A stretch of DNA of 64,000 nt, taken from NCBI RefSeq assembly GCF_001941865.1, contig NZ_CP016162.1:3161501-3225500 (forward strand). The letters are read 5' to 3'. A program made the position numbers and the translations under genes. Below the pieces are notes generated by a model. It did not search any database and was not told the origin of the DNA. It was given only the letters and a program-made list of their open reading frames with translations. Positions 16,313-39,655 of the stretch are shown here, one piece after another (the first letter of the stretch is position 1; each line of letters opens with the position of its first letter). This stretch comes from Pseudomonas alcaliphila JAB1 (GTDB lineage: Bacteria; Pseudomonadota; Gammaproteobacteria; Pseudomonadales; Pseudomonadaceae).

Positions 16313-16364
16313 CTGACCACGAGGTCAAATATTTGTTGACCCAAAAGTCAGAAAACTCTAGATT
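16313..16364 (+). promoter_or_regulatory. xdhA promoter with tandem RutR-like boxes
   Basis: Two boxes of the form yTGACC-N4-rGTCAr lie 23 bp apart: CTGACCACGAGGTCAA (16313-16328) and TTGACCCAAAAGTCAG (16336-16351). The second supplies a -35 hexamer TTGACC (16336-16341), 17 bases from TAGATT (16359-16364), a plausible -10. No TTGTATACAA box is seen here. The rest of the 385 bp gap (16073-16457) holds the alkB terminator and nothing else recognised. Confidence 0.7.
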
Positions 16365-16457
16365 GCCTCCATGGCCAATCACGTCCGGGCCTTGCAATGC
16401 GTGCACATACCCGGCGAGCCAAACGATTCATAACAATAAAGTGCCTGGAGGTCGTCC

Positions 16458-17897
16458 TTGATCCAGTTTTTACTCAACCGGGAGCTGCGCACCGAGCATG
16501 CCCTGGACCCCAACGTCACCGTGCTCAACTACCTGCGTGAGCATGTCGGCAAAACCGGAACCAAGGAAGGCTGCGCCTCCGGCGACTGCGGTGCCTGCAC
16601 CGTGGTGGTGGGCGAGCTCGAGGGCGAGCGCGTACGCTACCGCACCCTCAACTCCTGCCTGACTTTCGTTTCCAGTCTGCACGGCAAGCAACTGATCACC
16701 GTCGAAGACCTCAAGCACCAGGGCAAGCTGCACAGCGTGCAGCAGGCGATGGTCGACTGCCATGGCTCGCAATGTGGCTTCTGCACCCCCGGTTTCATCA
16801 TGTCGCTGTTCGCCCTGCAGAAGAACTCCACCGGCTACGACAAGGGCCAGACCCTGGAAGCCCTGGCCGGCAACCTGTGCCGCTGTACCGGCTACCGCCC
16901 GATCATCGACGCCGCCGAGCAGGCCTGCTGCCAGAAGCAGCCGGATCAGTTCGATGCCTTCGAAAGCAACACCGTGGCCCAGCTCCAGGCCATCGCCCCG
17001 CGTGAAACTGCCGAGCTCAACAGTGGCGACAAGCGCTGCCTGGTGCCGCTGACTGTGGCCGACCTGGCCGACCTCTATGCCGCCAACCCCGAAGCCCGCC
17101 TGCTCGCCGGCGGCACCGATCTGGCCCTGGAAGTCACCCAGTTTCACCGCGAACTGCCGGTGATGATTTACGTCGGTCATATCGAAGACATGAAGCGCAT
17201 CGAAGTGACCGACAGCGCCATCGAAATCGGCGCTGCCGCGGCCCTGTCCGACTGCTACGAAGCGCTGTCGCGCGAGTACCCGGACTTCGGCGAACTGCTG
17301 CACCGCTTCGCCTCGCTGCAGATCCGCAACCAGGGCACCCTGGGCGGCAATATCGGCAACGCCTCGCCCATCGGCGACGCCCCGCCGCTGCTGATCGCCC
17401 TTGGCGCGCAGATCGCCCTGCGCCAGGGCAACACCCGGCGCATCCTGCCGCTGCAGGACTACTTCCTCGACTACAAGGTGACCGCGCGCCAGGAAGCCGA
17501 ATTCATCGAGAAGATCATCGTGCCGCGCGCCCAGGCCAACCAGGCGTTCCGCGCCTACAAGGTATCGAAGCGCCTGGACGACGACATTTCCGCCGTCTGC
17601 GCGGCCTTCAACCTGACTATCGTCGACGGCGTGGTCACCGAAGCGCGCATCGCCTTCGGCGGCATGGCCGCCATCCCCAAACGCGCCAGCGCCTGCGAAG
17701 CGGCCCTGGTCGGCTCGGCCTGGTACCCGGGCGTGATCGAACGCGCCTGCGACGCGCTGGGCGAGGACTTCACCCCGCTGTCGGATTTCCGCGCCAGCAA
17801 GGAATACCGCCTGCTCACTGCCCAGAACCTGCTGCGCAAGTTCTTCCTGGAGCAGCAGTCGCCCGAGGTCGAGACCCGGGTTACCGCCTACGCGTAA
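16458..17897 (+). CDS. xdhA: Xanthine dehydrogenase, FeS/FAD subunit
   Basis: XdhA passes electrons from the molybdenum centre in XdhB through two [2Fe-2S] clusters to FAD and NAD+. The 479-residue protein has plant-ferredoxin-type cysteines 39, 44, 47 and 67 (EGCASGDCGACT). The second cluster uses Cys106, 109, 141 and 143 (CGFC and CRCTGYRP). The FAD site LLAGGTDLAL lies near 216-225, followed by a CO-dehydrogenase-flavoprotein C-terminal domain. Translation starts at TTG (16458), with GGAGG seven bases upstream and no nearer alternative. xdhB follows after 62 bp. Confidence 0.96.
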   Translation: MIQFLLNRELRTEHALDPNVTVLNYLREHVGKTGTKEGCASGDCGACTVVVGELEGERVRYRTLNSCLTFVSSLHGKQLITVEDLKHQGKLHSVQQAMVDCHGSQCGFCTPGFIMSLFALQKNSTGYDKGQTLEALAGNLCRCTGYRPIIDAAEQACCQKQPDQFDAFESNTVAQLQAIAPRETAELNSGDKRCLVPLTVADLADLYAANPEARLLAGGTDLALEVTQFHRELPVMIYVGHIEDMKRIEVTDSAIEIGAAAALSDCYEALSREYPDFGELLHRFASLQIRNQGTLGGNIGNASPIGDAPPLLIALGAQIALRQGNTRRILPLQDYFLDYKVTARQEAEFIEKIIVPRAQANQAFRAYKVSKRLDDDISAVCAAFNLTIVDGVVTEARIAFGGMAAIPKRASACEAALVGSAWYPGVIERACDALGEDFTPLSDFRASKEYRLLTAQNLLRKFFLEQQSPEVETRVTAYA

Positions 17898-17959
17898 GCG
17901 TGCAGTGAATTGATACGCCGCCGGCCAGCCCGGCGGCATGCGAAGTTTTGGAGGCGAAG

Positions 17960-20356
17960 ATGTCCAGTCATATCGAACACAAATCCCAGGAAGAGCTGGC
18001 CGCTCTGTTCCGCGCCGGCATGACCAGCGGCGTCGGCCGCAGCGTCAAGCACGAGAGCGCGGACAAGCATGTGTCCGGCGAAGCGGTCTATGTCGACGAC
18101 CGCCTGGAATTCCCCAACCAGTTGCACGTCTATGCGCGCCAGTCGGACCGTGCCCATGCGCGCATCCTGCGCATCGACACCCGCCCCTGCTACGAGTTTC
18201 CGGGCGTGGCCATCGCCATCACCAAGGACGACGTACCGGGCCAGCTGGACATCGGTCCTGTGGTCGCCGGTGACCCGCTGCTGGCCGACGGCAAGGTCGA
18301 GTACGTTGGCCAGGTGGTGCTGGCGGTAGCCGCTGACAGTCTGGAAACCGCGCGCAAGGCGGCCATGGCCGCCATCGTCGAATACGAAGACCTAGAGCCG
18401 GTGCTCGACGTGGTCGAGGCCTACCGCAAGAAGCATTTCGTGCTCGCCAGCCACACCCACCGCATCGGCGACTCGGCCAGCAAACTGGCCAGCGCCCCGC
18501 GTCGCCTGCAGGGCACCCTGCATATCGGCGGCCAGGAACACTTCTACCTGGAAACCCAGATTTCCTCGGTGATGCCGACTGAAGACGGCGGCATGCTGGT
18601 CTACACCTCGACGCAGAACCCCACCGAGGTGCAGAAACTGGTCGCCGAAGTGCTCGGCGTGCCGATGAACAAGATCGTCATCGACATGCGCCGCATGGGT
18701 GGCGGCTTCGGCGGCAAGGAAACCCAGGCTGCCGGCCCGGCGTGCCTGTGCGCGGTGATCGCGCACCTCACCGGCCGGCCGACCAAGATGCGCCTGCCGC
18801 GCGTCGAAGACATGAGCATGACCGGCAAGCGTCACCCCTTCTACGTCGAGTACGACGTCGGCTTCGATGACGACGGCCTGCTGCACGGCATCGAGATGGA
18901 CCTGGCCGGCAACTGCGGCTACTCGCCGGACCTGTCCGGCTCCATCGTCGACCGCGCCATGTTCCACTCGGACAACGCCTACTTCCTCGGCAACGCCACC
19001 ATCAACGGTCATCGCTGCAAGACCAACACCGCGTCGAACACCGCCTACCGCGGTTTCGGCGGCCCGCAGGGCATGGTCGCCATCGAGGAAGTGATGGACG
19101 CCGTGGCGCGCCACCTCGGCAAGGACCCGCTGGAAGTGCGCAAGCTCAACTACTACGGCAAGACCGAGCGTAACGTCACCCACTACCATCAGACCGTCGA
19201 GCACAACGTCATTCACGAAATGACCGCCGAACTGGAGCAAAGCTGCGAGTACGCCAAGCGCCGTCGCGAAATCATCGAATTCAACCAAAAAAGCCCGGTA
19301 CTGAAGAAAGGCCTGGCCATGACCCCGGTGAAATTCGGCATCAGCTTCACCGCCACCTTCCTCAACCAGGCCGGCGCGCTGATCCACATCTACACCGACG
19401 GCTCGATCCACCTGAACCACGGCGGCACCGAGATGGGCCAGGGCCTCAACACCAAGGTCGCGCAGGTCGTCGCCGAAGTGTTCCAGGTCGATATCTCGCG
19501 CATCCAGATCACCGCCACCAACACCGACAAGGTGCCCAATACCTCGCCCACCGCAGCCTCCAGCGGCGCCGACCTCAACGGCATGGCGGCGAAGAACGCG
19601 GCCGAGACCATCAAGCAGCGCCTGGTCGACTTCCTGGTGCGCGAGTACAAGGTCACCCCGGAAGACGTGGAATTCCGCAATGGCCAGGTACGCGTGCGCG
19701 AGCACTTCCTGTCCTTCGAAGAGATGATCCAGAAGGCCTACTTCGGCCAGGTCTCGCTGTCTTCGACCGGCTTCTACCGCACGCCGAAGATTTACTACGA
19801 CCGCGACAAGGCGGCTGGCCGCCCCTTCTACTACTACGCCTACGGCGTGGCCTGCGTGGAAGTGCTGGTCGACACCCTGACCGGCGAGTACCGCATGCTG
19901 CGCGGCGACATCCTGCATGAGGTCGGCGACTCGCTGAACCCGGCCATCGACATCGGTCAGGTCGAAGGCGCCTTCGTCCAGGGCATGGGCTGGCTGACCA
20001 TGGAAGAGCTGGTGTGGAACGCCAAGGGCAAGCTGATGACCAACGGCCCGGCCAGCTACAAGATCCCGGCCATCGCCGACATGCCCATCGACCTGCGCGT
20101 GAAGCTGGTGGAAAACCGCAAGAACCCGGAAGACACCGTGTTCCACTCCAAGGCCGTGGGCGAGCCGCCCTTCATGCTCGGCATCGCTGCCTGGTGTGCC
20201 CTCAAGGACGCCGTGGCCAGCCTGGCGGACTACAAGGTGCAACCGCAGATCGACGCCCCGGCCACCCCTGAGCGCGTGCTCTGGGGCGTGGAACAGATGC
20301 GTAAGTTGAAACAAGCCAGAACAAGCGCCGTCGAGATGGAAACGGCAGGAGCGTAG
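17960..20356 (+). CDS. xdhB: Xanthine dehydrogenase, molybdopterin subunit
   Basis: XdhB binds the molybdenum cofactor and oxidises hypoxanthine and xanthine to urate. The 798-residue protein shows the family motifs MGGGFGGKET, AYRGFGGPQG, GTEMGQGLNTK and, near the C-terminus, KAVGEPPFMLG with the catalytic glutamate. The ATG at 17960 follows TTGGAGGCGAAG, a clear ribosome site, so an in-frame TTG four codons earlier is not used. The stop codon TAG lies within the arm of a palindromic repeat (20352-20417). Confidence 0.96.
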   Translation: MSSHIEHKSQEELAALFRAGMTSGVGRSVKHESADKHVSGEAVYVDDRLEFPNQLHVYARQSDRAHARILRIDTRPCYEFPGVAIAITKDDVPGQLDIGPVVAGDPLLADGKVEYVGQVVLAVAADSLETARKAAMAAIVEYEDLEPVLDVVEAYRKKHFVLASHTHRIGDSASKLASAPRRLQGTLHIGGQEHFYLETQISSVMPTEDGGMLVYTSTQNPTEVQKLVAEVLGVPMNKIVIDMRRMGGGFGGKETQAAGPACLCAVIAHLTGRPTKMRLPRVEDMSMTGKRHPFYVEYDVGFDDDGLLHGIEMDLAGNCGYSPDLSGSIVDRAMFHSDNAYFLGNATINGHRCKTNTASNTAYRGFGGPQGMVAIEEVMDAVARHLGKDPLEVRKLNYYGKTERNVTHYHQTVEHNVIHEMTAELEQSCEYAKRRREIIEFNQKSPVLKKGLAMTPVKFGISFTATFLNQAGALIHIYTDGSIHLNHGGTEMGQGLNTKVAQVVAEVFQVDISRIQITATNTDKVPNTSPTAASSGADLNGMAAKNAAETIKQRLVDFLVREYKVTPEDVEFRNGQVRVREHFLSFEEMIQKAYFGQVSLSSTGFYRTPKIYYDRDKAAGRPFYYYAYGVACVEVLVDTLTGEYRMLRGDILHEVGDSLNPAIDIGQVEGAFVQGMGWLTMEELVWNAKGKLMTNGPASYKIPAIADMPIDLRVKLVENRKNPEDTVFHSKAVGEPPFMLGIAAWCALKDAVASLADYKVQPQIDAPATPERVLWGVEQMRKLKQARTSAVEMETAGA

Positions 20357-20417
20357 GGTGGGCTTCAGCCCACCAACATCAACGGGGGTGTATTGGTGGG
20401 CTGAAGCCCACCCTACG
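20352..20417. repeat. Palindromic repeat (GTAGGGTGGGC type) inside the xdh operon
   Basis: CGTAGGGTGGGCTTCAGCCC and GGGCTGAAGCCCACCCTACG are exact inverted arms around a short spacer. The left arm contains the xdhB stop codon. A related half unit (CGTAGGGTGGACAACCGCG) follows at about 20447. The structure may act as a processing or stability element between xdhB and xdhC. Confidence 0.8.
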
Positions 20418-20513
20418 CCTGCGCGACATCCACCCTATGACGGTTCGTAGGGTGGACAACCGCGAAGCGTTATCCACCAGGCCGTAGACGCACAACCCAG
20501 CAGGTGTAAAACA

Positions 20514-20645
20514 ATGACAAAACACACCGAACCGAATAACCCGCCCGCTCGCCCGGCACCGGTGCCGATTCTCGATCCGTCGCCGAGCAACTGGCGCCTG
20601 CCGCGCCCGGGCCAGACCACGCCTTCCTGGAGGCTGAGCAAATGA
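20514..20645 (+). CDS. Proline-rich 43-residue microprotein coupled to xdhC
   Basis: A small frame reads MTKHTEPNNPPARPAPVPIL and ends GQTTPSWRLSK. Nine of its first 33 residues are proline; it has no membrane segment or metal motif. AGGTG lies about 8 bases before its ATG. Its TGA overlaps the xdhC ATG as ATGA, the arrangement of translational coupling. This makes it a plausible real gene of the xdh operon, or at least a coupling leader. I do not recognise a family. Confidence 0.5.
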   Translation: MTKHTEPNNPPARPAPVPILDPSPSNWRLPRPGQTTPSWRLSK

Positions 20646-21472
20646 GCTGGATCAGTGCCCTCGCCGAGCTGCAGCAAAAAGGTGAAGCCTGCGTGCTGGT
20701 GACCATCATCGAGGAACGCGGCTCGACGCCGCGTAATGCCGGCTCGAAGATGGTGGTCACCGCCGAGCGCATCTTCGAGACCATCGGCGGCGGCCATCTG
20801 GAGTACAAGGCCATGGAAATGGCCCGCGAGATGCTCGCCAGCCGCAGCCAGGACACGCGCCTGGAACGTTTCTCCCTCGGCGCCAGCCTGGGCCAGTGCT
20901 GCGGCGGCGCCACCGTGCTGCTGTTCGAGCCCATGGGTCAACCACAGGCGCAGATCGCCGTGTTCGGCGCCGGCCATGTCGGTCGCGCACTGGTGCCACT
21001 GCTCGCCAGTCTGCCGTGCAAGGTGCGCTGGATCGACTCACGGGAGAACGAATTCCCCGAACACATCCCCGCTGGTGCGCAGAAGATCGTCAACGACGAG
21101 GTGGTCGACGAGGTGGAGAACATGCCGCCCGGCAGCTACTACATCGTCATGACCCACAACCACCAGCTCGATCTGGAGCTGACCGCGGCGATCCTCAAAC
21201 GCGGCGACTTCGCCTACTACGGCCTGATCGGCTCGAAGACCAAACGCGTCAAGTTCGAGCATCGCCTGCGCGAGCGCGGCTTCGAGGAAACCCTGATGGC
21301 GCGCATGCGCTGCCCCATGGGCCTGGCCGAAGTGAAAGGCAAGCTGCCGGTGGAGATTGCCGTGTCCATCGCCGGTGAAGTAATTGCTACCTATAACGCA
21401 AGCTTCGGCCAGGACGTGAAGAAGGGTGAGTTCAGCGTCGCCAAGCTGTTGCCCGCCTCGCGCCGGTCCTGA
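20642..21472 (+). CDS. xdhC: Xanthine dehydrogenase accessory protein XdhC
   Basis: XdhC binds molybdenum cofactor, helps its sulphuration and inserts it into XdhB. The 276-residue protein has the N-terminal XdhC/CoxI domain (ERGSTPRNAGSKMVV, IGGGHLEYKAMEMA, SLGQCCGG) and a C-terminal Rossmann domain (FGAGHVGRALVPLL). Its ATG overlaps the stop of the preceding microprotein frame. Guanine deaminase follows after 73 bp. Confidence 0.95.
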   Translation: MSWISALAELQQKGEACVLVTIIEERGSTPRNAGSKMVVTAERIFETIGGGHLEYKAMEMAREMLASRSQDTRLERFSLGASLGQCCGGATVLLFEPMGQPQAQIAVFGAGHVGRALVPLLASLPCKVRWIDSRENEFPEHIPAGAQKIVNDEVVDEVENMPPGSYYIVMTHNHQLDLELTAAILKRGDFAYYGLIGSKTKRVKFEHRLRERGFEETLMARMRCPMGLAEVKGKLPVEIAVSIAGEVIATYNASFGQDVKKGEFSVAKLLPASRRS

Positions 21473-21545
21473 CTCTTGGTGCGCTGTGCGCACCTACCCC
21501 CATTTTTATGGCGCGCCCAGCGCGCACCCCACGCATGAGATCCGA

Positions 21546-22853: not shown

Positions 22854-22873
22854 AACGAACAGCCTGATCGCCT

Positions 22874-22936
22874 TGTAGGAGTCGGCTTGCCGGCGATCAA
22901 TTCACTAGCGCATCGCTGGCAAGCCAGCTCCTACAA
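22874..22936. repeat. REP-like inverted repeat
   Basis: TGTAGGAGTCGGCTTGCCGGCG faces CGCTGGCAAGCCAGCTCCTACA across a 17-base spacer. It sits in the convergent gap between guaD and the GntR gene. Confidence 0.7.
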
Positions 22937-22964
22937 AAATACGCCTCAACGTAGACACGCCAAT

Positions 22965-23000
22965 GAAAAAGCCCCGATGCTCGCGCAGCGGGGCTTTCTT
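22965..23000. terminator. Bidirectional terminator between guaD and gntR
   Basis: GAAAAAGCCCCG and CGGGGCTTTCTT form a stem with A/T tails on both sides. It serves guaD on the plus strand and the GntR gene on the minus strand. Confidence 0.85.
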
Positions 23001-23016
23001 GATTACACGCAACGAA

Positions 23017-23784
23017 TCAGCGATTGGCAGCGCTGCGACCCGGCTTTTTCTTGGTCTGCAGCAGGTGCGAGAACACTGCGTGCAGGTCGTCCGAGGCGCT
23101 TTCCTCGTCCAGGTTGAGCTTGCTGTCGATGTGGTCCATGTGGTGCATCATCAGGTGCACCGCACGCTCGGCGTCACGCGCTTCGATGGCGTCGATCAGT
23201 TGGTTGTGTTCGTCGTAGGAGCAATGCGAGCGGCTGCCGCTTTCGTACTGGGCGATGATCAACGAGGTCTGCGACACCAGGCTGCGCTGGAAGCTTACCA
23301 GCGGCGCATTACGCGCGGCCTCGGCCAGCTTCAGGTGGAACTCGCCGGACAGGCGAATACCCGCACCACGATCACCACGGGAGAAACTGTCCTGCTCGTC
23401 CTTGACCATCTGCCGCAGCTCGGCCAGTTGCTCGGCTGTCGCGTGCTCGACGGCCAGTTCGGTGATGGCGCGCTCGACCAGGCGGCGTGCATAGAAGATC
23501 TGCCGAGCTTCTTCGACGCTCGGGCTGGCGACTACCGCACCGCGGTTCGGGCGCAGCAGTACCACACCCTCGTGGGCCAGTCGTGACAGGGCGCGGCGAA
23601 TGATGGTGCGACTGACGCCGAAGATCTCACCCAGCGCCTCTTCACTCAGCTTGGTGCCGGGCGCCAGACGCTGCTCGAGAATGGCATCGAAGATATGGGC
23701 ATATACGACATCGTCCTGAGTCCCGCTGCGGCTGCTTTTGCCCACGCGCGGCTGCTTCTTGAGAGGCTGCAATTGATCGTTCAT
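23017..23784 (-). CDS. GntR-family regulator (FCD type) of purine catabolism
   Basis: This 255-residue regulator has a winged helix (EIFGVSRTIIRRALSRLAHE, about residues 54-73) and an FCD domain with the metal-binding histidines expected of that fold (EFHLKLAE, DEHNQLIDAI, VHLMMHHMDHI). It lies between guanine deaminase and the purine permease, divergent from the latter. TTGTATACAA-type palindromes occur in its own upstream region and before many purine and glyoxylate genes, so it is the likely binder. That assignment is inference. The start MNDQLQ at 23784 is favoured, but an ATG-equivalent 15 bp upstream is possible. Confidence 0.88.
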   Translation of the reverse strand: MNDQLQPLKKQPRVGKSSRSGTQDDVVYAHIFDAILEQRLAPGTKLSEEALGEIFGVSRTIIRRALSRLAHEGVVLLRPNRGAVVASPSVEEARQIFYARRLVERAITELAVEHATAEQLAELRQMVKDEQDSFSRGDRGAGIRLSGEFHLKLAEAARNAPLVSFQRSLVSQTSLIIAQYESGSRSHCSYDEHNQLIDAIEARDAERAVHLMMHHMDHIDSKLNLDEESASDDLHAVFSHLLQTKKKPGRSAANR

Positions 23785-23888
23785 TCTGGCTCGCGTCAAT
23801 GAGAGTCGGCGACACTGCGACTCTACTGTGTTCTACCCGGTAGCTGACAAGCTCCGAGCGAAAAAACATCAGAAAAAAATTAAGACAA

Positions 23889-23898
23889 TTGTACACAA
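23889..23898. promoter_or_regulatory. TTGTATACAA-type box upstream of gntR
   Basis: TTGTACACAA is one base from the perfect palindrome and lies 105 bp before the regulator start. It suggests autoregulation. Confidence 0.55.
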
Positions 23899-24210: not shown

Positions 24211-24271
24211 TTGCATTTTTTGTATACAACCGCATAATCGCGCCTGAGTGACTTCTTGACCGCTCGGTCAA
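24211..24271 (+). promoter_or_regulatory. azgA promoter with both operator types
   Basis: A perfect TTGTATACAA lies at 24220-24229, inside a possible promoter TTGCAT (24211-24216), 16 bases, CATAAT (24233-24238). Downstream is the best RutR-like box of the window, TTGACCGCTCGGTCAA (24256-24271), with both half-sites perfect. The rest of the A/T-rich 593 bp gap (23785-24377) holds no supported gene. Confidence 0.7.
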
Positions 24272-30203: not shown

Positions 30204-30281
30204 GTGCACAATCTTAAAATAAATTGTTTTTAACCATGTCCACAAGTTGCTATAGTCAGCCCATCCTGACCGATCGGACAA
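30202..30281 (+). promoter_or_regulatory. Operator region upstream of the NCS2 permease
   Basis: TTGTGCACAA (30202-30211) is a perfect palindrome related to TTGTATACAA. TATAGT at 30251-30256 may be a -10. CTGACCGATCGGACAA (30266-30281) fits the RutR-like box with one half-site mismatch. The next 140 bp is repeat copy 3, which separates these sites from the gene. Confidence 0.55.
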
Positions 30282-30465: not shown

Positions 30466-30505
30466 AAGCCCATGACCGTATAAAAACAAAATGGCAGGCT
30501 ATGAC

Positions 30506-32014
30506 ATGACCACAGACAGCAACACCCAAGCCCCAGCTGCGCCCGTCGGCAACAGCGACCTCATCTATCAGCTGGACGACACGCCAGCTTTCACCCCTGC
30601 CATCTTCGCGGCGCTGCAGCATGTGCTGGCCAGCTTCGTCGGCATCATCACCCCTACCCTGATCGTCGGTAGTGCGCTGGGCCTCGGCGCCCATGTGCCT
30701 TATCTGGTGAGCATGGCGCTGTTCGTTTCCGGCCTCGGCACCTTCGTCCAGGCCAAACGCATCGGCCCGATCGGCTCCGGCCTGTTGTGCCTGCAGGGCA
30801 CCAGCTTCGGTTTTCTCAGCGTGATTCTCAGCGCCGGGTTCATCGTCAAGGGGCGCGGCGCCAGCGAGGAGGAGATACTCGCCACGCTGTTCGGCATCTG
30901 CTTCTGCGCCGCCTTCGTCGAGATCGCCTTCAGCCAGTTCATCAACAAGCTGCGCAAGGTGATCACCCCGGTGGTGACCGGCACCATCATCTGCCTGATG
31001 GGGTTGTCGCTGATCAAGGTGGGCATGACCGATCTGGCCGGCGGCTATGGCGCGCCAGACCTCGGCGCCCTGCACCATTTGGCCCTCGGCGGCCTGGTGT
31101 TGGGCACTATTGTCGTGCTCAACCGCGCGTCCTCGCAGGTGCTGCGCCTTTCTGCGGTGATCATCGGCCTGACTCTGGGATTTGCAGTCGCCTGGTTCAC
31201 CGGCCGGGTGGACTTCGCCAACATGGCTGAGGTGCCACTGATCAGCGTGCCGCAACCGTTCAAGTACGGCTTCGGCTTCGACTGGATCGCCTTCGTGCCG
31301 ATCGCCGTGATCTTCCTGATCACCCCGCTGGAAACCGCAGGCGATCTGACCGCCAACTCGATCATCTCCAAACAGCCGGTCAAAGGGCCGCTGTACATGC
31401 GCCGGATCAAATCCGGAGTGCTGGCCGACGGCTGCAACTCGGCGGTCGCCGCCATGTTCAACAGCTTGCCGATGACCACCTTCAGCCAGAACAACGGGGT
31501 GATCCAACTCACCGGCGTAGCTAGCCGCCATGTGGGTTTCTATATCGCCGGCATCCTGGTGCTGCTGGGCCTGTTCCCGATGGTGGGTGCGGTGTTGCAG
31601 ATGATGCCCAAGCCGGTGCTCGGTGGCGCCACCTTGATCATGTTCGGCACCGTTGCGGTGGCCGGCATCAAGATTCTCAGCGAAGCCGGCCTGCACCGCC
31701 GCAACGTGCTGATCGTGGCCATTTCCCTGGGCCTTGGCCTGGGTGTAGCCGGCGTGCCGGACGTGCTCTCGCACATGCCGGACGTACTGAAGAACATCTT
31801 CAGCTCGCCCATCACCATCGGCGCCTTCAGCGCCATTCTGCTCAATCTCTTCCTGCCGGATGATCCGCAACTGGAAGAAGAGGATGAAAGCGAATACGAC
31901 CCCGAGGCGCACCTGCATACCGTGCTGCAGAACCGCCCGGACGATGCAGCCATCGACGACAACAGCCTCAAGACCCTCAGCCGCGACCTCGACCCGGCCG
32001 CCCGACCGAGCTGA
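30506..32014 (+). CDS. Urate/xanthine permease, NCS2 (NAT) family
   Basis: This 502-residue inner-membrane transporter belongs to the nucleobase-ascorbate branch of NCS2. It has the signature around QNNGVIQLTGVASRHVG and the transport-site segment TPLETAGDLTANS. Relatives in E. coli are UacT, XanQ and XanP; the context next to urate oxidase favours urate or xanthine. ATG 30506 is preferred over 30491 because GGCAGG stands before it. A long acidic tail (EEEDESEYDPEAH) follows the last helix. The Tsx-like channel gene is 76 bp downstream. Confidence 0.92.
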   Translation: MTTDSNTQAPAAPVGNSDLIYQLDDTPAFTPAIFAALQHVLASFVGIITPTLIVGSALGLGAHVPYLVSMALFVSGLGTFVQAKRIGPIGSGLLCLQGTSFGFLSVILSAGFIVKGRGASEEEILATLFGICFCAAFVEIAFSQFINKLRKVITPVVTGTIICLMGLSLIKVGMTDLAGGYGAPDLGALHHLALGGLVLGTIVVLNRASSQVLRLSAVIIGLTLGFAVAWFTGRVDFANMAEVPLISVPQPFKYGFGFDWIAFVPIAVIFLITPLETAGDLTANSIISKQPVKGPLYMRRIKSGVLADGCNSAVAAMFNSLPMTTFSQNNGVIQLTGVASRHVGFYIAGILVLLGLFPMVGAVLQMMPKPVLGGATLIMFGTVAVAGIKILSEAGLHRRNVLIVAISLGLGLGVAGVPDVLSHMPDVLKNIFSSPITIGAFSAILLNLFLPDDPQLEEEDESEYDPEAHLHTVLQNRPDDAAIDDNSLKTLSRDLDPAARPS

Positions 32015-33001: not shown

Positions 33002-33041
33002 AAAAAGGGGGATGGGCGCTCGCGCCCTTCCCCCTTTTTCT
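33002..33041 (+). terminator. Strong terminator after the Tsx-like gene
   Basis: AAAAAGGGGGATGGGCGC and GCGCCCTTCCCCCTTTTT pair over nearly their whole length and end in a T run. Confidence 0.92.
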
Positions 33042-33081
33042 TTGATCGTCATTTTTCTATGAACAGGATGCGCTTGAGACC

Positions 33082-33870
33082 GGACTGGCAAATATGTGTG
33101 CATATCGTTCACTGGCTTAGCACTATCCGTTACCGCGTGTGCTGAGCGTTTGGGTTGCGCCCCTTACGGGCGCCACACCTTGATTCGCTGCGCTCACCCT
33201 TCGGGCCAGCCTGCGGCTGTTACTGCGCTTCGCTACGTTTCTTTGCTTGCCCAAGAAAGGTGTGCCAAAGAAGGGCACCCCGACATCCGGGTTTCGCTGC
33301 GCGAAACTTGATTCGCTTTGCTCACCCTGCGGGCCAGCCTGCGGCTGTTACTCCGCTTCGCTGCGTTTCCTCGCTCCGGCGCCGCTGCGGGGGCCGGCTT
33401 ACATGGGCCATCCTTAGCCCATTAAGCCTTTCGCCGCATCCATGCGGCTCATCCCCCTACGCAACACCTCCGCTCGGCCTCCTGAAGGGGACCGGGCCGC
33501 GAGCTTGCGAAATCTCCGGAAGATCAAAGTCGGCAGCGTTTGGATTTTGCTCTTGAAGCGCGATCTCACAGACGACGTCTAAGTCCCCTTCAGGAGGCCG
33601 AGTGGAATCGCCGTGGAAGGGGTTGAGCGACATGGATGTCGCGAGAGCTGCGATGGGCCAGGGATGGCCCTTCGCAGCGTGCCCCTGGAGCGGTGATGGA
33701 AGGAGGGAACCCCGGCGCAGCCGGGGCCGTATGCAGGGGTGTGTTTCTTTGCTTACTTTCTTTGCACAAGCAAAGAAAGTGAGTCGCCCGTAAGGGGCGA
33801 AACCCGTCAGGTCAGGCGACGCGTTAATGGATAGGGCCAGCACCGAAAGCACACACTTATTTGCCAGTCC
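33082..33870. repeat. ~790 bp inverted-repeat element without transposase
   Basis: The ends GGACTGGCAAATATGTGTG (33082-33100) and the complement of CACACTTATTTGCCAGTCC (33852-33870) match in 18 of 19 bases. The inverted similarity continues about 100 bp inward, with CGCCCCTTACGGGCG facing CGCCCGTAAGGGGCG. A second inverted pair lies inside: CTCGGCCTCCTGAAGGGGAC at 33473-33492 and its complement at 33583-33602. Open frames of 131-133 codons occur on both strands but overlap the palindromes and look like shadows. It fills most of the 1.29 kb gap between the Tsx-like and NCS1 genes. Confidence 0.75.
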
Positions 33871-34002
33871 AGCTCAACCGGCACTTGCCCAGCACCGAGC
33901 GAGACGCACCAACCTAATCCCCTCGAACGAGACCAGGCACCGCATCGGTGCAGAATCGGGCCGCCTATCCGGCTTTTTCATCAACGACTTGCAAACATGC
34001 AA

Positions 34003-34143
34003 CTGACCGCAAGGTCAAGTTTTTGATCACAATATTTCTATTTTTTGTGTGCAATTTGTCCGAAAGCCATATTTAGCACCGTATTTTCTGTGTACAAGAC
34101 AGTCAGGTTCCCACCGAAATACTGTCGAAATGGCTGTATACAT
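34003..34143 (+). promoter_or_regulatory. Operator region upstream of the NCS1 permease
   Basis: A good RutR-like box CTGACCGCAAGGTCAA lies at 34003-34018. Three weaker TTGTATACAA-type sites follow: TTGTGTGCAA (34045-34054), CTGTGTACAA (34088-34097) and CTGTATACAT (34134-34143). The stretch is A/T-rich compared with its surroundings. Confidence 0.55.
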
Positions 34144-34240
34144 CGATTCAGCCATGACGCGAATACAAAATCGGAACGGAACCTGCAGACAAATCTCCTC
34201 ATACGCCGCCGCGGCGCAAGAACAAAACTGGGAGCTGTCC

Positions 34241-35707
34241 ATGTCCAACACCGAAGAATTCCGCATCAAGCACATCGATACCTCGCTGCACAACGAGGAT
34301 CTCGCCCCGCTCGCCCCGGAGAAACGCAAATGGGGCTGGTTCGAGATCTTCAACGTCTGGTCCAACGACATTCAAAGTCTGTTCGGCTATACCCTGGCCG
34401 CCACCCTGTTCATCTCCTACGGGCTCAATGGCTGGGCGGTGCTGACCGGTATCGTCCTTGCCGGCTTCATCGTCATGGGCCTGGTGCAGCTGACCGGCAA
34501 ACCCAGCGTCAAGTACGGCATTCCCTTCCCGGTGTTCGCCCGCGCCAGCATGGGCGTGCGCGGGGCCAACTTCCCGGCCCTGGTACGCGGCATCGTCGCC
34601 ATCTTCTGGTACGGCGTGCAGACCTACTTCGCCTCCACCGCCGTGGCGCTGCTGCTCAACTCGCTGCTGCAGCCCGAGGCGCCGGCCACCTTCCTCGGCA
34701 TGACCGCCATCGGCTGGCTGTCCTACCTGATCGTCTGCGTGTTCCAGGTGGCGCTGTTCATCCGCGGCATCGACTGGATCACCAAGTTCCTCAACTGGGC
34801 CGGACCGCTGGTCTATGTGGTGATGATCGCCCTGATGGGTCTGATCTGGTATCAGGCCGGCCCGAGTCTGCTCAGCGAGCTGGGCAACATCTTCAGTGGC
34901 ACGGGCGAGTACAAGGCCGGCCCGGTGGCCGCGTTCTTCGCCGTGGTCGGCACCATGGTCGCCTACTTCGCCGCCGTGGTGATCAACTACGGCGACTTCG
35001 CCCGCTTCGTCAAAAGCGAGAAGCAGATGACCATCGGCAACTTCCTCGGCCTACCGGTGAGCCTGGCATTCTTCTCGCTGATCGCCCTGGTGATCACTGC
35101 AGGCACCGTGGTGGTGTTCGGCGAGACGCTGACCAACCCGACCGATATCGTTGCCCGGGTAGACAACCTGACCCTGACCATCATCGCCGCGCTGACCTTC
35201 TTCGCCGCGACCGTGGGCATCAACCTGGTGGCCAACTTCATCCCGCCAGCCTATGACCTGGCCAACCTGGCGCCGGCACACATCAGCGCCCGTACCGGTG
35301 GCTTCATCACTGCCGGCATCGCCTTCTTCATCGGCGCGCTGTGGGTGGCTTTCATCAGCAACGTCGGCATCGCCGCCTTCGTCGACACCCTGGGCGCCGT
35401 GCTGGCGCCGCTGTACGGCATCATCGTCGTCGACTATTACCTGGTGCGCCAGCGCAAGCTCGATCTGCAGCAGCTGTTCAGCGCCGAGGTCGGCTCGGCT
35501 TACTACTTCGACGGCGGCTGGAACCGCAAGGCGCTGATCGCCTTTGCCATCGCCTCGGTGTTTTCCGTCGCCTCGGTGTGGGCGCCCGTTCTTAGCCAGC
35601 TGTCGGGTTATTCCTGGCTGCTCGGCGCCCTGCTCGGCGCGCTACTGCACTACGGCCTAATGCACGGCCAGGCGCAGGCGCTGAAACGCGCCAACGCCAG
35701 TATCTGA
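34241..35707 (+). CDS. NCS1-family nucleobase permease
   Basis: This 488-residue inner-membrane symporter has about 12 helices and NCS1 features (FNVWSNDIQSLFGYTLAATL at the first helix, GKPSVKYGIPFPVFARASMG). The family carries cytosine, uracil, allantoin, purines or hydantoins; the substrate here is not certain. The ATG at 34241 has GGGAG upstream; a frame reaching back to 34049 would cross the operators. A terminator lies just beyond the stop, inside the end of the convergent gene. Confidence 0.9.
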   Translation: MSNTEEFRIKHIDTSLHNEDLAPLAPEKRKWGWFEIFNVWSNDIQSLFGYTLAATLFISYGLNGWAVLTGIVLAGFIVMGLVQLTGKPSVKYGIPFPVFARASMGVRGANFPALVRGIVAIFWYGVQTYFASTAVALLLNSLLQPEAPATFLGMTAIGWLSYLIVCVFQVALFIRGIDWITKFLNWAGPLVYVVMIALMGLIWYQAGPSLLSELGNIFSGTGEYKAGPVAAFFAVVGTMVAYFAAVVINYGDFARFVKSEKQMTIGNFLGLPVSLAFFSLIALVITAGTVVVFGETLTNPTDIVARVDNLTLTIIAALTFFAATVGINLVANFIPPAYDLANLAPAHISARTGGFITAGIAFFIGALWVAFISNVGIAAFVDTLGAVLAPLYGIIVVDYYLVRQRKLDLQQLFSAEVGSAYYFDGGWNRKALIAFAIASVFSVASVWAPVLSQLSGYSWLLGALLGALLHYGLMHGQAQALKRANASI

Positions 35708-35711
35708 ACGA

Positions 35712-36551
35712 TCACGGACGAGACGAAGCCGGCGCCTGTGCGCCGGCTTTTTCTTTCTGCCGCTCGAGAAAGTCCACCTTCCACTGTTCCAGACCGATGT
35801 AGTCGCTATCCAGGTTGGCCTCGACGCGATAGCTCGCCTTGAGCGCGGCAACCTGAGCCGAGCGCTCGGCAAGAAAGCGATCGAAACGCGCGATCAGCTG
35901 TGGATGACGAGCGCTGGACAGGTGAAAGCTGCCGCGGGTATGCGGCAACTTGGGATCAAAGACCAAAGCACCCGGTCGCGCCCGGATGTTGTCCAGATAA
36001 TGGGTGGCCACCACCACGTTGAAGTAGGCGCCATCAGTGTCCTGTTTCAAGGCCTGGCGAATCATCTGACGTAGATCATCGCTGTAGCTCAGCTGGATCT
36101 GCCCACTGTCGATGGCATCTTCGTATCCACGCGGTGTCCAGCCCTGCACCATGGCCAGACGACGGATGTTCTCCAACGCCTGCCCCTGACGCTGCGGTGC
36201 CACCAGCACGCCGTCGACGTAGTCGACCACCGCCTGGCTGTAGTGCAAGGTCATGCCTGCTTTCTGCGCGCCGGCCCAGTACGGGCTGTCGGGATACTTG
36301 AGATCGATCTCGCCGCGCTGCAGGGCCGGCAGCAACTGATCCACCGGCAACGCCTTGTAGCTCAGGCTGATACCGCTATCGACGGCGAAGGCATCCAGCA
36401 CCTCACGAGCGAAGCCGCGGTACTGACCTTCGCCATCGAGGCTGTAGTGCGGGGCGAATGGCAGGTCCTCGACGCCGACCACGTAGGTTTGCGCTAGGGC
36501 AGCGGGCGTCAGCAAAAGGGTGGAAAACAGGCACAGTCGTACGGGCTGCAT
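35712..36551 (-). CDS. Periplasmic solute-binding protein (family 3)
   Basis: The 279-residue precursor has a signal peptide (LCLFSTLLLTPAALA, cleavage about residue 20) and the two-lobed SBP family 3 pattern (GVEDLPFAPHY, GFAREVLDAFAVDSGI, LQRGEIDLKYPDSPYW). AAGGAGG stands eight bases before the ATG at 36551. No ABC permease or ATPase gene is adjacent, so it may be an orphan binding or sensor protein. The last ~14 codons coincide with the neighbour's terminator. Confidence 0.88.
   Translation of the reverse strand: MQPVRLCLFSTLLLTPAALAQTYVVGVEDLPFAPHYSLDGEGQYRGFAREVLDAFAVDSGISLSYKALPVDQLLPALQRGEIDLKYPDSPYWAGAQKAGMTLHYSQAVVDYVDGVLVAPQRQGQALENIRRLAMVQGWTPRGYEDAIDSGQIQLSYSDDLRQMIRQALKQDTDGAYFNVVVATHYLDNIRARPGALVFDPKLPHTRGSFHLSSARHPQLIARFDRFLAERSAQVAALKASYRVEANLDSDYIGLEQWKVDFLERQKEKAGAQAPASSRP
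35726..35753 (+). terminator. NCS1 terminator inside the convergent gene's end
   Basis: AAGCCGGCGC-CTGT-GCGCCGGCTTTTTC is a strong terminator 18 bases after the NCS1 stop. It lies within the coding sequence for the C-terminal tail of the binding protein on the other strand. Confidence 0.85.
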
Positions 36552-36632
36552 TGAGAGCCTCCTTATTGTTGTTTTGAGATTGCGGTGAGGGCTTAGCGTC
36601 AGGCATAAGATGTCGGTCAGGCGCAGGCCTGA

Positions 36633-36706
36633 GTAGGAGCCCCGCCTCGGGGCGAAGCTTTTGAGTCGTCTGAACCGGCCCATTCGCCGCGGGGCGCGGC
36701 TCCTAC
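36633..36706. repeat. REP-like inverted repeat
   Basis: GTAGGAGCCCCGCCTCGGGGCG faces CGCCGCGGGGCGCGGCTCCTAC. It lies in the 228 bp gap between the moaA stop and the binding-protein start. Confidence 0.7.
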
Positions 36707-36779
36707 AAGGACTGTGCAGTCTGCTGTAATTGATGTGGCGGTCTGGACCAATAGGCAACAGATTATTCGTATCGCGACA

Positions 36780-37775
36780 CTAACCGCCGGTCATGCTCAT
36801 GAAGCGCACCACCTGCACCTGCTCGTCGGTGGCGAAATGGTGCCGCTCTGGCTTCAGACGCAGCGCCTCGATCAGTGCCTGCCGCAAGCGCTCGCTGTCA
36901 CCCGGATGCACGCGCAGCAGGCGCTTGAGGTCCAGCGCGTTGTCGTGGCCGAGACAGAGCACCAGCTTGCCCTCGGCGGTGACCCGCACACGGTTGCAGT
37001 CGCCGCAGAAGTTGTGACTGTGCGGCGAGATAAAGCCGACTCGCGTATCGCTACCGACCACCTGCCAGTAGCGCGATGGCCCGCCAGTGACCTTGCTGCT
37101 ACGCACCAGCGCATGGCGCTGTTCGATACGCTGGCGCACCTCGTCGCTGGAGCAGAAGGTCTGCTCGCGGCTGTGGCTGACCACGCTGCCCAGCGGCATT
37201 TCCTCGATGAAGCTGATATCCAGGTCGCGCGCGATGGCGAACTCGACCAGATCCAGCACCTCGTCATCATTGCGCCCACTCTGCACCACGCTGTTGAGCT
37301 TGATCCTGTCGAAGCCTGCGGCACGCGCGGCGTCGATGCCGGCCAGCACCTGGTCGAGCTTGTCACGTCGGGTGAAGGCGGCGAAGCGCTCGCGCTGCAG
37401 TGAATCCAGGCTGATGTTCAGGCGCCGCACACCCGCCGCGCGCAACGGCGCGGCCATCTCCGCCAGTTGCGAGCCATTGGTGGTAATGGCCAGGTCATCC
37501 AGCTCGTCACGCTCACCCAGGCGCTGCAACAGGCTCAGCAGATTCTTGCGTACCAATGGCTCGCCGCCAGTGATGCGAATACGCCGCACACCCAGCCCGA
37601 TAAAGGCATCGGCCACGGCATACAGCTCTTCCAGGCTGAGAATCTGCGCACGCGGCGCGAACTGCATGTCTTCACTCATGCAGTAGGTGCAGCGAAAATC
37701 GCAGCGATCGGTCACCGACAAACGCAGGTAGGTGATGCGCCGCCCGAAGGGATCGACGAGCTGATGGGTATTCAC
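36780..37775 (-). CDS. moaA: GTP 3',8-cyclase MoaA (molybdenum cofactor synthesis)
   Basis: MoaA is a radical-SAM enzyme that starts molybdenum cofactor synthesis from GTP. The 331-residue protein has the radical-SAM cysteines 25, 29 and 32 (CDFRCTYC), the C-terminal cluster ligands in NFCGDCNRVR and LVLCLG, and the terminal Gly-Gly (SMTGG) needed for activity. No other moa/moe gene is nearby. Its placement beside purine genes and its shared control region suggest a copy that supplies cofactor to xanthine dehydrogenase. Confidence 0.95.
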   Translation of the reverse strand: MNTHQLVDPFGRRITYLRLSVTDRCDFRCTYCMSEDMQFAPRAQILSLEELYAVADAFIGLGVRRIRITGGEPLVRKNLLSLLQRLGERDELDDLAITTNGSQLAEMAAPLRAAGVRRLNISLDSLQRERFAAFTRRDKLDQVLAGIDAARAAGFDRIKLNSVVQSGRNDDEVLDLVEFAIARDLDISFIEEMPLGSVVSHSREQTFCSSDEVRQRIEQRHALVRSSKVTGGPSRYWQVVGSDTRVGFISPHSHNFCGDCNRVRVTAEGKLVLCLGHDNALDLKRLLRVHPGDSERLRQALIEALRLKPERHHFATDEQVQVVRFMSMTGG

Positions 37776-37856
37776 GGTGGGTCTCCTGCAGCGTCACGCG
37801 CCGAGACTTTTTGTCATGGATGACGCTATGCGCGATAGAAACAGAAAAGCGAATTC

Positions 37857-37886
37857 TTGTATACAGAAATTTGACCCGAGAGTCAG
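37857..37886. promoter_or_regulatory. moaA-tetR divergent operators
   Basis: TTGTATACAG (37857-37866) and the RutR-like box TTGACCCGAGAGTCAG (37871-37886) lie side by side in the 212 bp divergent region. On the minus strand CTGACT and TATACA within these sites are 17 bases apart and could be the moaA -35 and -10. Confidence 0.6.
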
Positions 37887-37987
37887 TTAAGCGCTGAGCA
37901 GCCCGTGGCCGCTGGCTTGAGCCTCGCGCAAAGCCGGTGCTACCATGCCCGACCGCCGCCCGGCGGCAGAGCAAACCACAGGGCCTT

Positions 37988-38632
37988 ATGACCAGCATCC
38001 GCGAGCGTAACAAAGAGCTCATCCTGCGCGCAGCCAGCGAGGAGTTCGCCGACAAGGGCTTCGCCGCCACCAAGACCAGTGACATTGCGGCCAAGGCAGG
38101 CCTGCCCAAGCCCAACGTCTACTACTACTTCAAGTCCAAGGAAAACCTCTACCGCGAGGTCCTGGAAAGCATCATCGAGCCACTGCTGGCCGCCTCTGCC
38201 CCCTTCAATCAGCCAGGCCATCCGAGCGAAGTGCTGACCGCCTACATCCGCTCGAAGATCCGCATCTCCCGTGAACTGCCGCATGCCTCCAAGGTATTTG
38301 CCAGCGAGATCATGCACGGTGCACCGCACCTGTCGCCGGAACAGACCGAACAGCTCAACGCCCAGGCCAAGCACAACATCGCCTGCATCCAGCGCTGGAT
38401 CGATCAGGGCCTGATGGCGCAGGTCGACCCGCATCACCTGCTGTTCAGCATCTGGGCCGCGACCCAGACCTACGCCGACTTCGACTGGCAGATCTCCACC
38501 GTCACCGGCAAGGCCAGCCTGGACGACGCCGACTACGAAGCTGCGGCGCAGACCATCATTCGGCTGGTGCTCAAGGGTTGCGACGTCAGCCCGATGCCGT
38601 CGATGGCCTCCGAACTGGTGACCAGCGCCTAG
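37988..38632 (+). CDS. TetR-family regulator, RutR-like
   Basis: This 214-residue repressor has an N-terminal helix-turn-helix (TSDIAAKAGLPKPNVYYYFK, about residues 31-50) and a C-terminal domain resembling RutR (NLYREVLESIIEPLLAASAPF, ASKVFASEIMHGAP). E. coli RutR binds TTGACCANNTGGTCAA and senses pyrimidines. Here seven yTGACC-N4-rGTCAr boxes stand before xdhA, azgA, the NCS2 and NCS1 permeases, moaA/tetR and gcl, so this protein is their probable binder. The inducer in this setting is unknown. AGGG precedes the ATG at 37988. Confidence 0.88.
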   Translation: MTSIRERNKELILRAASEEFADKGFAATKTSDIAAKAGLPKPNVYYYFKSKENLYREVLESIIEPLLAASAPFNQPGHPSEVLTAYIRSKIRISRELPHASKVFASEIMHGAPHLSPEQTEQLNAQAKHNIACIQRWIDQGLMAQVDPHHLLFSIWAATQTYADFDWQISTVTGKASLDDADYEAAAQTIIRLVLKGCDVSPMPSMASELVTSA

Positions 38633-38644
38633 GCGACTGTTCCA

Positions 38645-38900
38645 CCGTAGGGTGTGCCGACCTCCGTCACTGTAGGGCGTGCATACGCCGAGCGCTCGAG
38701 CGCAGCACGCCGTTGCAGGGGCATGGCGGACTGCTCGCTGGCGCTCGCTGAGTCCGCCCTACGCCTGCCCTGAGATTTCACGCCCAGCTTCGGCCTTCAG
38801 ACCACATCCCGTAGGGCGTACTCGCGCAGCAGTACGCCGTTGCAATGACCGACTATTAGCGTCGCTACGAGCGGCCGGCGATCCGGTCAGCCCTGCGGCT
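38645..38900. repeat. Region of GTAGGGCGT-type repeats
   Basis: Several short units recur here: GTAGGGTGTGCCG, GTAGGGCGTGCATACGCC, GCAGCACGCCGTTGCA, GTAGGGCGTACTCGCG and GCAGTACGCCGTTGCA. These are imperfect direct and inverted copies of an intergenic repeat also seen as one unit near 58402. It separates tetR and the convergent GlcG-like gene. Confidence 0.55.
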
Positions 38901-38911
38901 ACTCTGGAACC

Positions 38912-39346
38912 CTACGCCCCCGCATCCGCCTTCAGGCCGAGCGACTCCAGCGCACTCACCGCGCACTGCTCGTCGATGTCCGAGGTGTCGCCGGTGATGC
39001 CGACGGCGCCGATCACCTCACCGCGCTCGTCACGAATCAATACCCCTCCCGGCGCGGGTACCAGGCTGCCTTGAGCCAGGTTGTTCACCGCCCCGATAAA
39101 GGCCGGGCGCTGCTGCGCGTCGGCGGCGATCAGGCGCGAGCCCTTGCCCAGAGCCAACGCGCCCCAGGCCTTGCCGATGGCGATCTGCGGACGCAGCAGG
39201 CTGGCGCCGTCCTCACGCTGCAGGCAAATCAGATGCCCGCCAGCATCCAGTACCGCGACGGTCAGCGGCGCCGCCTTTATCTCGCGGCCCACGGCCAGCG
39301 CGCGGTTACCGATGGCATTGGCGGTTTGCAGGTTCAAGTGGCTCAT
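38912..39346 (-). CDS. GlcG/HbpS-family protein
   Basis: This 144-residue single-domain protein of the GlcG/HbpS (DUF336) family has VAVLDAGGHLICLQREDGAS, IAIGKAWGALALGKGS and the Gly-rich PAPGGVLIRDERGEVIGAVG. Members occur beside glycolate, glyoxylate and propanediol genes; some bind haem or cobalamin, and the role here is unknown. It is divergent from gcl and shares its control region. Confidence 0.88.
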   Translation of the reverse strand: MSHLNLQTANAIGNRALAVGREIKAAPLTVAVLDAGGHLICLQREDGASLLRPQIAIGKAWGALALGKGSRLIAADAQQRPAFIGAVNNLAQGSLVPAPGGVLIRDERGEVIGAVGITGDTSDIDEQCAVSALESLGLKADAGA

Positions 39347-39495
39347 GGTGATGACTCCTGAAGTGACAAAGGGAACGAAACACCCGGAGCGAAACCGGCA
39401 CTGCGCACGCCGACAGCCCTAGGCAATCCAAAGCTCGCCCTCACTATCCCACCAGAAACAAAAAATTCAACTACTACATACAATATTATTTTTTA

Positions 39496-39505
39496 TTGTA
39501 TACAG
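39496..39505. promoter_or_regulatory. TTGTATACAA-type box between glcG-like gene and gcl
   Basis: TTGTATACAG lies in an A/T-rich stretch 150 bp before the GlcG-like start, on that gene's side of the divergent region. Confidence 0.5.
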
Positions 39506-39601
39506 TTGTCTCGACACACTTCTTCGACTGCACTACCAACCCCGTCAAACGGGCGTTTCAAAAGAATTTAGCCCAGGCGACAGGCTGCACCGGAAAAATT
39601 G

Positions 39602-39655
39602 TTGACCGCGAAGTCATGGCCTGCATAGAATCCGAGCCAGGTGTTTTGTATACAA
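39602..39655 (+). promoter_or_regulatory. gcl promoter with both operators
   Basis: TTGACC (39602-39607), 18 bases and TAGAAT (39626-39631) form a promoter. Its -35 is the left half of the RutR-like box TTGACCGCGAAGTCAT (39602-39617). A perfect TTGTATACAA lies downstream at 39646-39655, before the ribosome site. The divergent gap 39347-39681 holds nothing else. Confidence 0.7.

What the first reader, a model, noticed from the sequence alone, without database searches (positions are those of the whole stretch)
16313..39617. A RutR-like box (TTGACC-N4-GGTCAA) recurs before purine, transport, moaA and glyoxylate genes
Seven sites fit yTGACC-N4-rGTCAr: 16313 and 16336 (xdhA), 24256 (azgA-type permease, perfect half-sites), 30266 (NCS2 permease), 34003 (NCS1 permease), 37871 (moaA/tetR), 39602 (gcl). 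In xdhA and gcl the left half is the -35 of a good promoter. The half-sites equal the known E. coli RutR box, and a RutR-like TetR protein is encoded at 37988-38632 with a site in its own promoter. This would be a RutR relative redeployed from pyrimidine to purine/glyoxylate control.
Basis: partly seen in the sequence, partly recalled or inferred. Interest (0 to 1): 0.82.

Follow-up and report, generated by a model that had tools for sequence, protein, structure and literature searches.

The report
RutR-like repressor box at purine genes
A repeated DNA tag in front of purine-breakdown genes in Pseudomonas is real and conserved, and most likely marks where a relative of the uracil sensor RutR, encoded beside the glyoxylate genes, switches off xanthine breakdown and purine uptake.

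Summary
Five exact sites in 23 kb against 0.013 expected is not chance. The core TGAC-N6-GTCA lies upstream of xdhA in 33 of 33 genomes examined that carry an orthologue of the window's TetR protein, usually as a tandem pair covering the -35 box, in 9 of 9 with only RutR paralogues, and in 0 of 12 with no RutR-family hit. It lies upstream of 16 of 17 azgA-type permease orthologues and 0 of 13 paralogues. The moaA/tetR, NCS1, tsx and gcl sites are lineage-specific; the NCS2 site is a poorly conserved variant. The TetR protein is a RutR paralogue, not RutR: the uracil-stacking Trp77 is Leu/Ile in 21 of 21 clade members examined. A 2025 paper proposed its likely P. aeruginosa counterpart, PA1504, as an untested allantoin regulator. 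My reading: a purine-catabolism repressor with xdhA and azgA as core targets, overlaid on the urate-responsive GntR regulator UgmR. Binding is inferred, not shown; the ligand is unknown.

The parts
16313..16328 (+). xdhA box 1, CTGACCACGAGGTCAA
   Evidence: tandem pair in 29 of 34 orthologue-bearing promoters, window included
16336..16351 (+). xdhA box 2, TTGACCCAAAAGTCAG; covers the -35 hexamer and part of the spacer
16336..16364 (+). xdhA promoter, TTGACC-17-TAGATT
   Evidence: TTGACC with TANNNT at 16-18 nt in 28 of 29 tandem promoters
16458..17897 (+). xdhA, xanthine dehydrogenase small subunit
   Evidence: TIGR02963 698.6 bits, cut-off 467
23017..23799 (-). GntR/FCD regulator, probable UgmR/GclR counterpart (from domains and neighbourhood; orthology not tested)
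24221..24228 (+). TGTATACA motif 35 nt upstream (start to start) of the azgA box, probable GntR operator (inferred)
   Evidence: a TGTATACA or TGTACACA 33-36 nt upstream in 17 of 17 orthologues
24256..24271 (+). azgA box, perfect TTGACC-N4-GGTCAA
   Evidence: core in 16 of 17 orthologues, 0 of 13 paralogues
30266..30281 (+). variant site CTGACCGATCGGACAA upstream of the NCS2-tsx genes; membership doubtful
   Evidence: one mismatch; 2 of 20 within two mismatches
30491..32014 (+). NCS2 xanthine permease (pbuX type)
   Evidence: TIGR03173 434.9 bits, cut-off 414.15
34003..34018 (+). NCS1 box, CTGACCGCAAGGTCAA
   Evidence: core in 7 of 11 listed promoters
34049..35707 (+). NCS1 permease open reading frame (true start lies inside)
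36780..37775 (-). moaA (GTP 3',8-cyclase, molybdenum cofactor synthesis)
   Evidence: TIGR02666 376.9 bits, cut-off 284.05
37871..37886 (+). moaA/tetR box, TTGACCCGAGAGTCAG
   Evidence: 12 of 16 loci with this gene pair
37988..38632 (+). TetR-family protein, RutR paralogue, proposed regulator
39602..39617 (+). gcl box, TTGACCGCGAAGTCAT; left half is the -35
   Evidence: 4 of 16, 14 of 69 within two mismatches
39602..39631 (+). gcl promoter, TTGACC-18-TAGAAT
39682..41457 (+). gcl, glyoxylate carboligase
   Evidence: TIGR01504 1185.3 bits, cut-off 711.2

Best explanation
The boxes are operators of the TetR-family protein encoded at 37988-38632, a RutR paralogue dedicated to purine catabolism. 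A homodimer binds TGAC-N6-GTCA. At xdhA two dimers would bind side by side, centres about 23 nt apart, the inner one covering the -35 hexamer and part of the spacer, so that RNA polymerase is excluded. At azgA the dimer would bind 33-36 nt downstream of a TGTATACA motif that is probably the site of the urate-responsive GntR regulator, giving two-input repression. A purine-derived ligand rather than uracil would release it; allantoin or a purine base is my best guess. xdhA and azgA are the best-conserved targets; moaA/tetR, NCS1, tsx and gcl were added or lost by lineage. Shown: the sites, their conservation and spacing, promoter overlap, co-occurrence, clade membership and loss of Trp77. Inferred: binding, repression, ligand and the identity of the TGTATACA binder.
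For: Five exact sites in 23.3 kb, P about 4e-12. xdhA core box: 33 of 33 genomes with the orthologue (21, 12), 0 of 12 without any RutR-family hit at E<=1e-20. Tandem pair in 29 of 34 orthologue-bearing promoters (window included) and 0 of 9 with paralogues only; 28 of the 29 pairs overlap a TTGACC/TANNNT promoter. azgA 16 of 17 orthologues, 0 of 13 paralogues. Genome G162 has this orthologue as its only RutR-family hit and has both boxes. Site between moaA and tetR in 12 of 16 loci. RutR homology and Leu/Ile for Trp77 in 21 of 21 members, Trp in 22 of 22 other-clade proteins, one further 50%-identical outlier having Leu.
Against: No binding data seen here. Nine genomes with only RutR paralogues (G145 and eight of g6) also have a single xdhA box, so a paralogue can probably use it. 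The regulator's own promoter lacks the box in g2, g4, g8, g9, g12 and g15 loci, and gcl lacks it in most (12 of 16). The 0-of-12 group comes from three genera, so few independent events, and its promoters may have diverged for other reasons. G014 keeps the protein without detected xdhA or gcl. PMC13086498 (passage) lists PA1504 from ChIP-seq as a regulator of motility only among the virulence pathways it scored.
Confidence: 0.76

Rival explanations
1. The other RutR paralogue (pyd-type; one copy in this genome at C1:4221323, 40% identical), or shared use by both proteins, occupies the boxes, so that purine genes are wholly or partly under pyrimidine-type control.
For: Nine genomes lacking the orthologue but holding paralogues keep an xdhA box. 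In g6 genomes the paralogue lies with a tsx-like porin and an NCS2 permease, with CTGACCGAGCGGACAG in front of that operon in G243, which resembles site 30266. 12 genomes with no RutR-family hit lack the box.
Against: G162 has no paralogue hit and has the boxes. The tandem arrangement occurs only with the orthologue (29 of 34 against 0 of 9). In this genome the 19.9-kb region around the paralogue has one core site, about 7 kb away, and none in its promoter. Recognition helices differ.
Confidence: 0.16
2. The left halves are simply -35 hexamers and the right halves chance or another regulator's site; there is no RutR-type regulon.
For: At xdhA box 2 and at gcl TTGACC is the -35, and many gcl promoters keep TTGACC without the right half.
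Against: Box 1 of xdhA and the azgA box are not at a -35 by the spacing seen and keep both halves across the genus; chance of a core in a 330-nt stretch is 0.4%. Paralogous permease promoters have 0 of 13. Presence follows RutR-family proteins (42 of 42 against 0 of 12).
Confidence: 0.04

Closest known systems
RutR of E. coli (TetR family, uracil sensor, TIGR03613)
   Same: TetR_N plus TetR_C_3 domains, closest solved structure, 16-bp palindrome with one matching half in the rutA/rutR and carA sites, DNA-contacting Lys52 and uracil-site residues Tyr97, Trp167, Gln171, Gln179 kept (roles from passages of PMC10891134).
   Different: Below both NCBIfam RutR cut-offs, separate clade, Trp77 replaced by Leu, not next to a rut operon, targets purine genes.
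PA1504 of P. aeruginosa (TetR with YcdC/RutR-type domain)
   Same: Same domains and, by the paper's description, next to the gcl cluster; named as possible allantoin regulator of gcl (PMC12694930, section 19).
   Different: Nothing known to differ; the PAO1 sequence was not fetched, so orthology is inferred from neighbourhood. The paper reports no operator or regulon for it.
UgmR / GclR (GntR family; PA1520 / PP_4283)
   Same: Represses the allantoin and gcl clusters, relieved by urate (PMC12694930, section 16); the window has a probable counterpart at 23017-23799.
   Different: A different protein family and, by inference, a different operator (TGTATACA).

Membership tests
RutR (uracil-sensing pyrimidine regulator) | TetR_N and TetR_C_3 (YcdC-like) domains | tested here: met
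   PF00440 61.6 bits, PF08362 208.7 bits
RutR (uracil-sensing pyrimidine regulator) | Score above the curated RutR cut-offs | tested here: not met
   TIGR03613 175.8 against 368, NF011584 158.7 against 230; a rut-operon RutR fragment from G243 scores 329.3 and 293.2, so it passes only the second
RutR (uracil-sensing pyrimidine regulator) | Encoded beside a rut operon | tested here: not met
   Neighbours are moaA, an HbpS-like gene and gcl; true rut-operon RutRs found in G145, G243 and G153
RutR (uracil-sensing pyrimidine regulator) | Uracil pocket Trp77, Tyr97, Trp167, Gln171, Gln179 | tested here: not met
   Trp77 is Leu in the window protein and Leu/Ile in 21 of 21 clade members; the other four are kept
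RutR (uracil-sensing pyrimidine regulator) | RutR operator | tested here: inconclusive
   Half-site shared; outer and inner positions of rut-operon sites differ
RutR (uracil-sensing pyrimidine regulator) | Release from DNA by uracil | not testable with these tools
   needs binding assays
PA1504-type regulator | Orthology to PA1504 by sequence | not tested
   PAO1 sequence not fetched; in two g12 genomes, G159 and G252, the order moaA-tetR-hbpS-gcl matches, and P. alcaligenes L074 has the same order
UgmR/GclR (GntR family) | GntR winged helix plus FCD domain | tested here: not met
   The TetR protein has neither; the separate protein at 23017-23799 has both

The most novel reading that the evidence does not exclude
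A RutR paralogue that lost the uracil-stacking tryptophan has become an allantoin (or purine-base) sensor. With the urate-responsive UgmR it forms a two-input gate on purine uptake and, in lineages whose gcl promoter carries the box, on glyoxylate use. It would be the missing UgmR-independent factor behind allantoin induction of gcl in P. aeruginosa, while gcl in most P. putida-type species depends on the GntR protein alone.
Probability: 0.32. Interest if true: 0.66.

Novelty: new member of a known kind. Interest (0 to 1): 0.52.

Why it matters
It gives a concrete operator and a ranked target list for a regulator whose likely P. aeruginosa counterpart was named in print in 2025 as a possible answer to how allantoin induces gcl, without an operator. 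It also shows one repressor family split into at least three clades in Pseudomonadaceae (rut-operon RutR, pyd-type, purine-type) with different recognition helices, a useful case of regulon turnover: proteins about 80-87% identical keep the xdhA and azgA sites but gain and lose gcl. For P. putida-type strains used for ethylene glycol conversion it predicts that gcl is mostly free of this repressor, in line with reports that loss of the GntR protein GclR alone is enough.

Tried and rejected
Rejected: gcl as a family-wide target (4 of 16). The CTGACAAGAAGGTCAA-type sites just after glxK in many fluorescens-type loci, which I read as stop codon, ribosome site and next start, hence coincidental. 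The 8-oxoguanine deaminase site (C1:4228629) as a conserved target: 2 of 17 close orthologues examined; four 44-45% identical hits of the same search were left out. Sites 26607 and 58346 as members: one mismatch each, no support found. Other exact genome sites (L001-L004, L010, L012) showed no clear purine link from their open reading frames (judged by eye). An E. coli gcl box: best match 5 mismatches within 417 nt upstream, although PMC10163214 (passages) says a RutR site is there.

Corrected: one search read minus-strand loci in the wrong orientation; one search repeats it correctly and only one search is used. Full information content of the half-site cores is forced by the selection and is not used as evidence.

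Dropped before counts: loci whose gene alignment did not reach the start or whose flank was too short; three further genomes without a close orthologue (G076, G079, G122) were not among the eight used.

Literature: the searches behind 'not found in print' were made, all of one open-licence library. Li et al. 2019 (GclR) and Xu et al. 2022 (UgmR) are known to me only through papers that cite them. PMC5343134 (passages) reports predicted RutR regulons in 68 genomes of 13 groups and PMC5299692 (passage) a RutR regulon propagated to P. stutzeri RCH2; I could not see whether RegPrecise files this purine-type protein under RutR, so part of the regulon may already be predicted there.

Full report
1. 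The observation. All seven sites are present where stated. With up to one mismatch, YTGACCNNNNRGTCAR gives 15 strand-hits in the window against 1.53 expected, and none of 100 shuffles reaches 15. Sites 30266 and 39602 carry one mismatch each. The whole genome has 12 distinct exact sites against about 3 expected, and 5 of them lie in this 23-kb stretch, P about 4e-12. The genes around them are xanthine dehydrogenase, guanine deaminase, a GntR/FCD regulator, an azgA-type permease, allantoinase PuuE, OHCU decarboxylase, ureidoglycolate lyase, a urate-oxidase-type protein, an NCS2 xanthine permease, a weakly Tsx-like porin, an NCS1 permease, moaA, the TetR protein, an HbpS-like protein, gcl, hyi, glxR and a glycerate-kinase-like gene: a purine-to-glycerate locus.

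2. Promoter anatomy. At xdhA two boxes lie 23 nt apart; the second begins with the -35 TTGACC, 17 nt before TAGATT. At gcl TTGACC is followed after 18 nt by TAGAAT. At azgA a TGTATACA motif lies 35 nt upstream of the perfect box. TGTATACA or near variants also lie at NCS2, NCS1, moaA/tetR and gcl. From the published action of UgmR at gcl (PMC12694930, section 16) I infer that these are operators of the GntR protein; I did not test it.

3. Conservation at xdhA. I took 30 genomes of the genus, 8 of them chosen because they lack a close TetR orthologue. xdhA was found in 22, and the core TGAC-N6-GTCA within 300 nt upstream in all 22. Of the 8 orthologue-negative genomes only G145 has xdhA and none has gcl at the thresholds used; of the 22 positive ones 21 have xdhA and 16 gcl. 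In other genera of the family, 12 of 12 genomes with the orthologue have the core. Genomes with only RutR paralogues, eight of g6 plus G145, have a box: 9 of 9. Genomes with no RutR-family hit at E<=1e-20, seven of g10, one of g16 and four of g17, have none: 0 of 12. Fisher tests give 3e-12 (any RutR-family protein) and 9e-7 (orthologue), but few independent losses lie behind them. The tandem pair occurs in 29 of 43 promoters examined, which is 29 of 34 with the orthologue (window included) and 0 of 9 without; 28 of the 29 keep TTGACC with TANNNT at 16-18 nt.

4. Conservation elsewhere. azgA: 16 of 17 orthologues (76-96% identical), the other one base off, in all 17 with TGTATACA or TGTACACA 33-36 nt upstream; paralogous permeases (53-59% identical) 0 of 13. 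moaA-tetR: 12 of 16 loci with this gene pair, absent from the g4, g8, g9 and g12 loci looked at. NCS1: 7 of 11 listed promoters keep the core. tsx-like porin in P. putida/syringae-type loci: 15 of 21. gcl: 14 of 69 within two mismatches against 1.2% in shuffles, 4 of 16 with the exact core, present in g12 genome G159; many others keep TTGACC as -35 only. NCS2: 2 of 20 within two mismatches, about half of the 20 being distant homologues; several orthologue sites share an RGACA right half (L065, L071, L141), resembling the site before the tsx-NCS2-paralogue operon of G243. 8-oxoguanine deaminase: 2 of 17.

5. The protein. It is TetR_N plus TetR_C_3, with RutR as closest solved structure, but scores 175.8 against a RutR cut-off of 368. 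A tree of 44 proteins separates purine-type (21), pyd-type and rut-operon RutR groups. The purine-type recognition helix reads GLPKPN(V/I)YYYF, once GVPKPNVYYYF. Trp77, which stacks on uracil in RutR (PMC10891134, figure-legend passage), is Leu or Ile in 21 of 21, while Tyr97, Trp167, Gln171 and Gln179 are kept; the 22 proteins of the other clades have Trp77, and one 50% identical outlier (L266) has Leu. I read this as a changed ligand. Rut-operon RutRs have TGGACCANNTGGTC-like candidate operators, so the operators differ too.

6. Who binds. G162 carries the orthologue and no other RutR-family hit, yet has the xdhA pair and an azgA box. This shows the paralogue is not required there. The paralogue-only genomes suggest that a paralogue can use a single xdhA box. 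I therefore put the window's TetR protein first and shared use second.

7. Known and new. PMC12694930 (sections 16 and 19 read, passages elsewhere) shows allantoin induction of gcl in P. aeruginosa, reports that UgmR is relieved by urate and not by allantoin, and names PA1504 as an untested candidate. PMC13357446 and PMC11166783 (passages) report that loss of GntR-type GclR lets KT2440 use ethylene glycol, which fits the lack of a box at most P. putida-type gcl promoters seen here. PMC10163214 (passages) mentions RutR at the E. coli gcl operon. PMC13086498 (passage) lists PA1504 among motility regulators from ChIP-seq. I found no paper in the held library that reports this operator or regulon, but RegPrecise RutR predictions for Pseudomonadaceae (PMC5343134, PMC5299692, passages) could not be inspected. 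It is a new regulon of a known kind of repressor, with a ligand change suggested by sequence.

Noticed in passing
24221, 26688, 34135, 37858, 39497, 39647 (TGTATACA); variants at 23890, 26507, 30203, 34046, 34089: A second operator-like motif lies at most of the same promoters and at a fixed 33-36 nt from the azgA box in 17 of 17 orthologues, probably that of the UgmR/GclR-type GntR protein.
   Followed up: partly
L213-L216, L218, L221, L225, about 116-166 nt upstream of the azgA paralogue: A related box CTGTC(C/T)-N4-GGTCAT is shared by 7 of 13 azgA-paralogue promoters, several in genomes without the purine-type TetR.
   Followed up: no
L139 5577 and 5710 (G000:C1:1165576 and 1165709): Two one-mismatch boxes lie 44 and 177 nt upstream of a second Tsx-like porin gene in this genome.
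   Followed up: no
G145 and g6 genomes, xdhA promoter: A single xdhA box is kept without the purine-type orthologue, so a paralogue may have taken over or may be the older binder.
   Followed up: partly
G014 (C1:1611398-1612033): A small genome keeps the TetR orthologue but has no xdhA or gcl at the thresholds used.
   Followed up: no
window 33150-33830: A stretch without recognised genes between the porin and the NCS1 permease, with motifs repeated in inverted orientation by eye, looks like a repetitive or degraded element.
   Followed up: no
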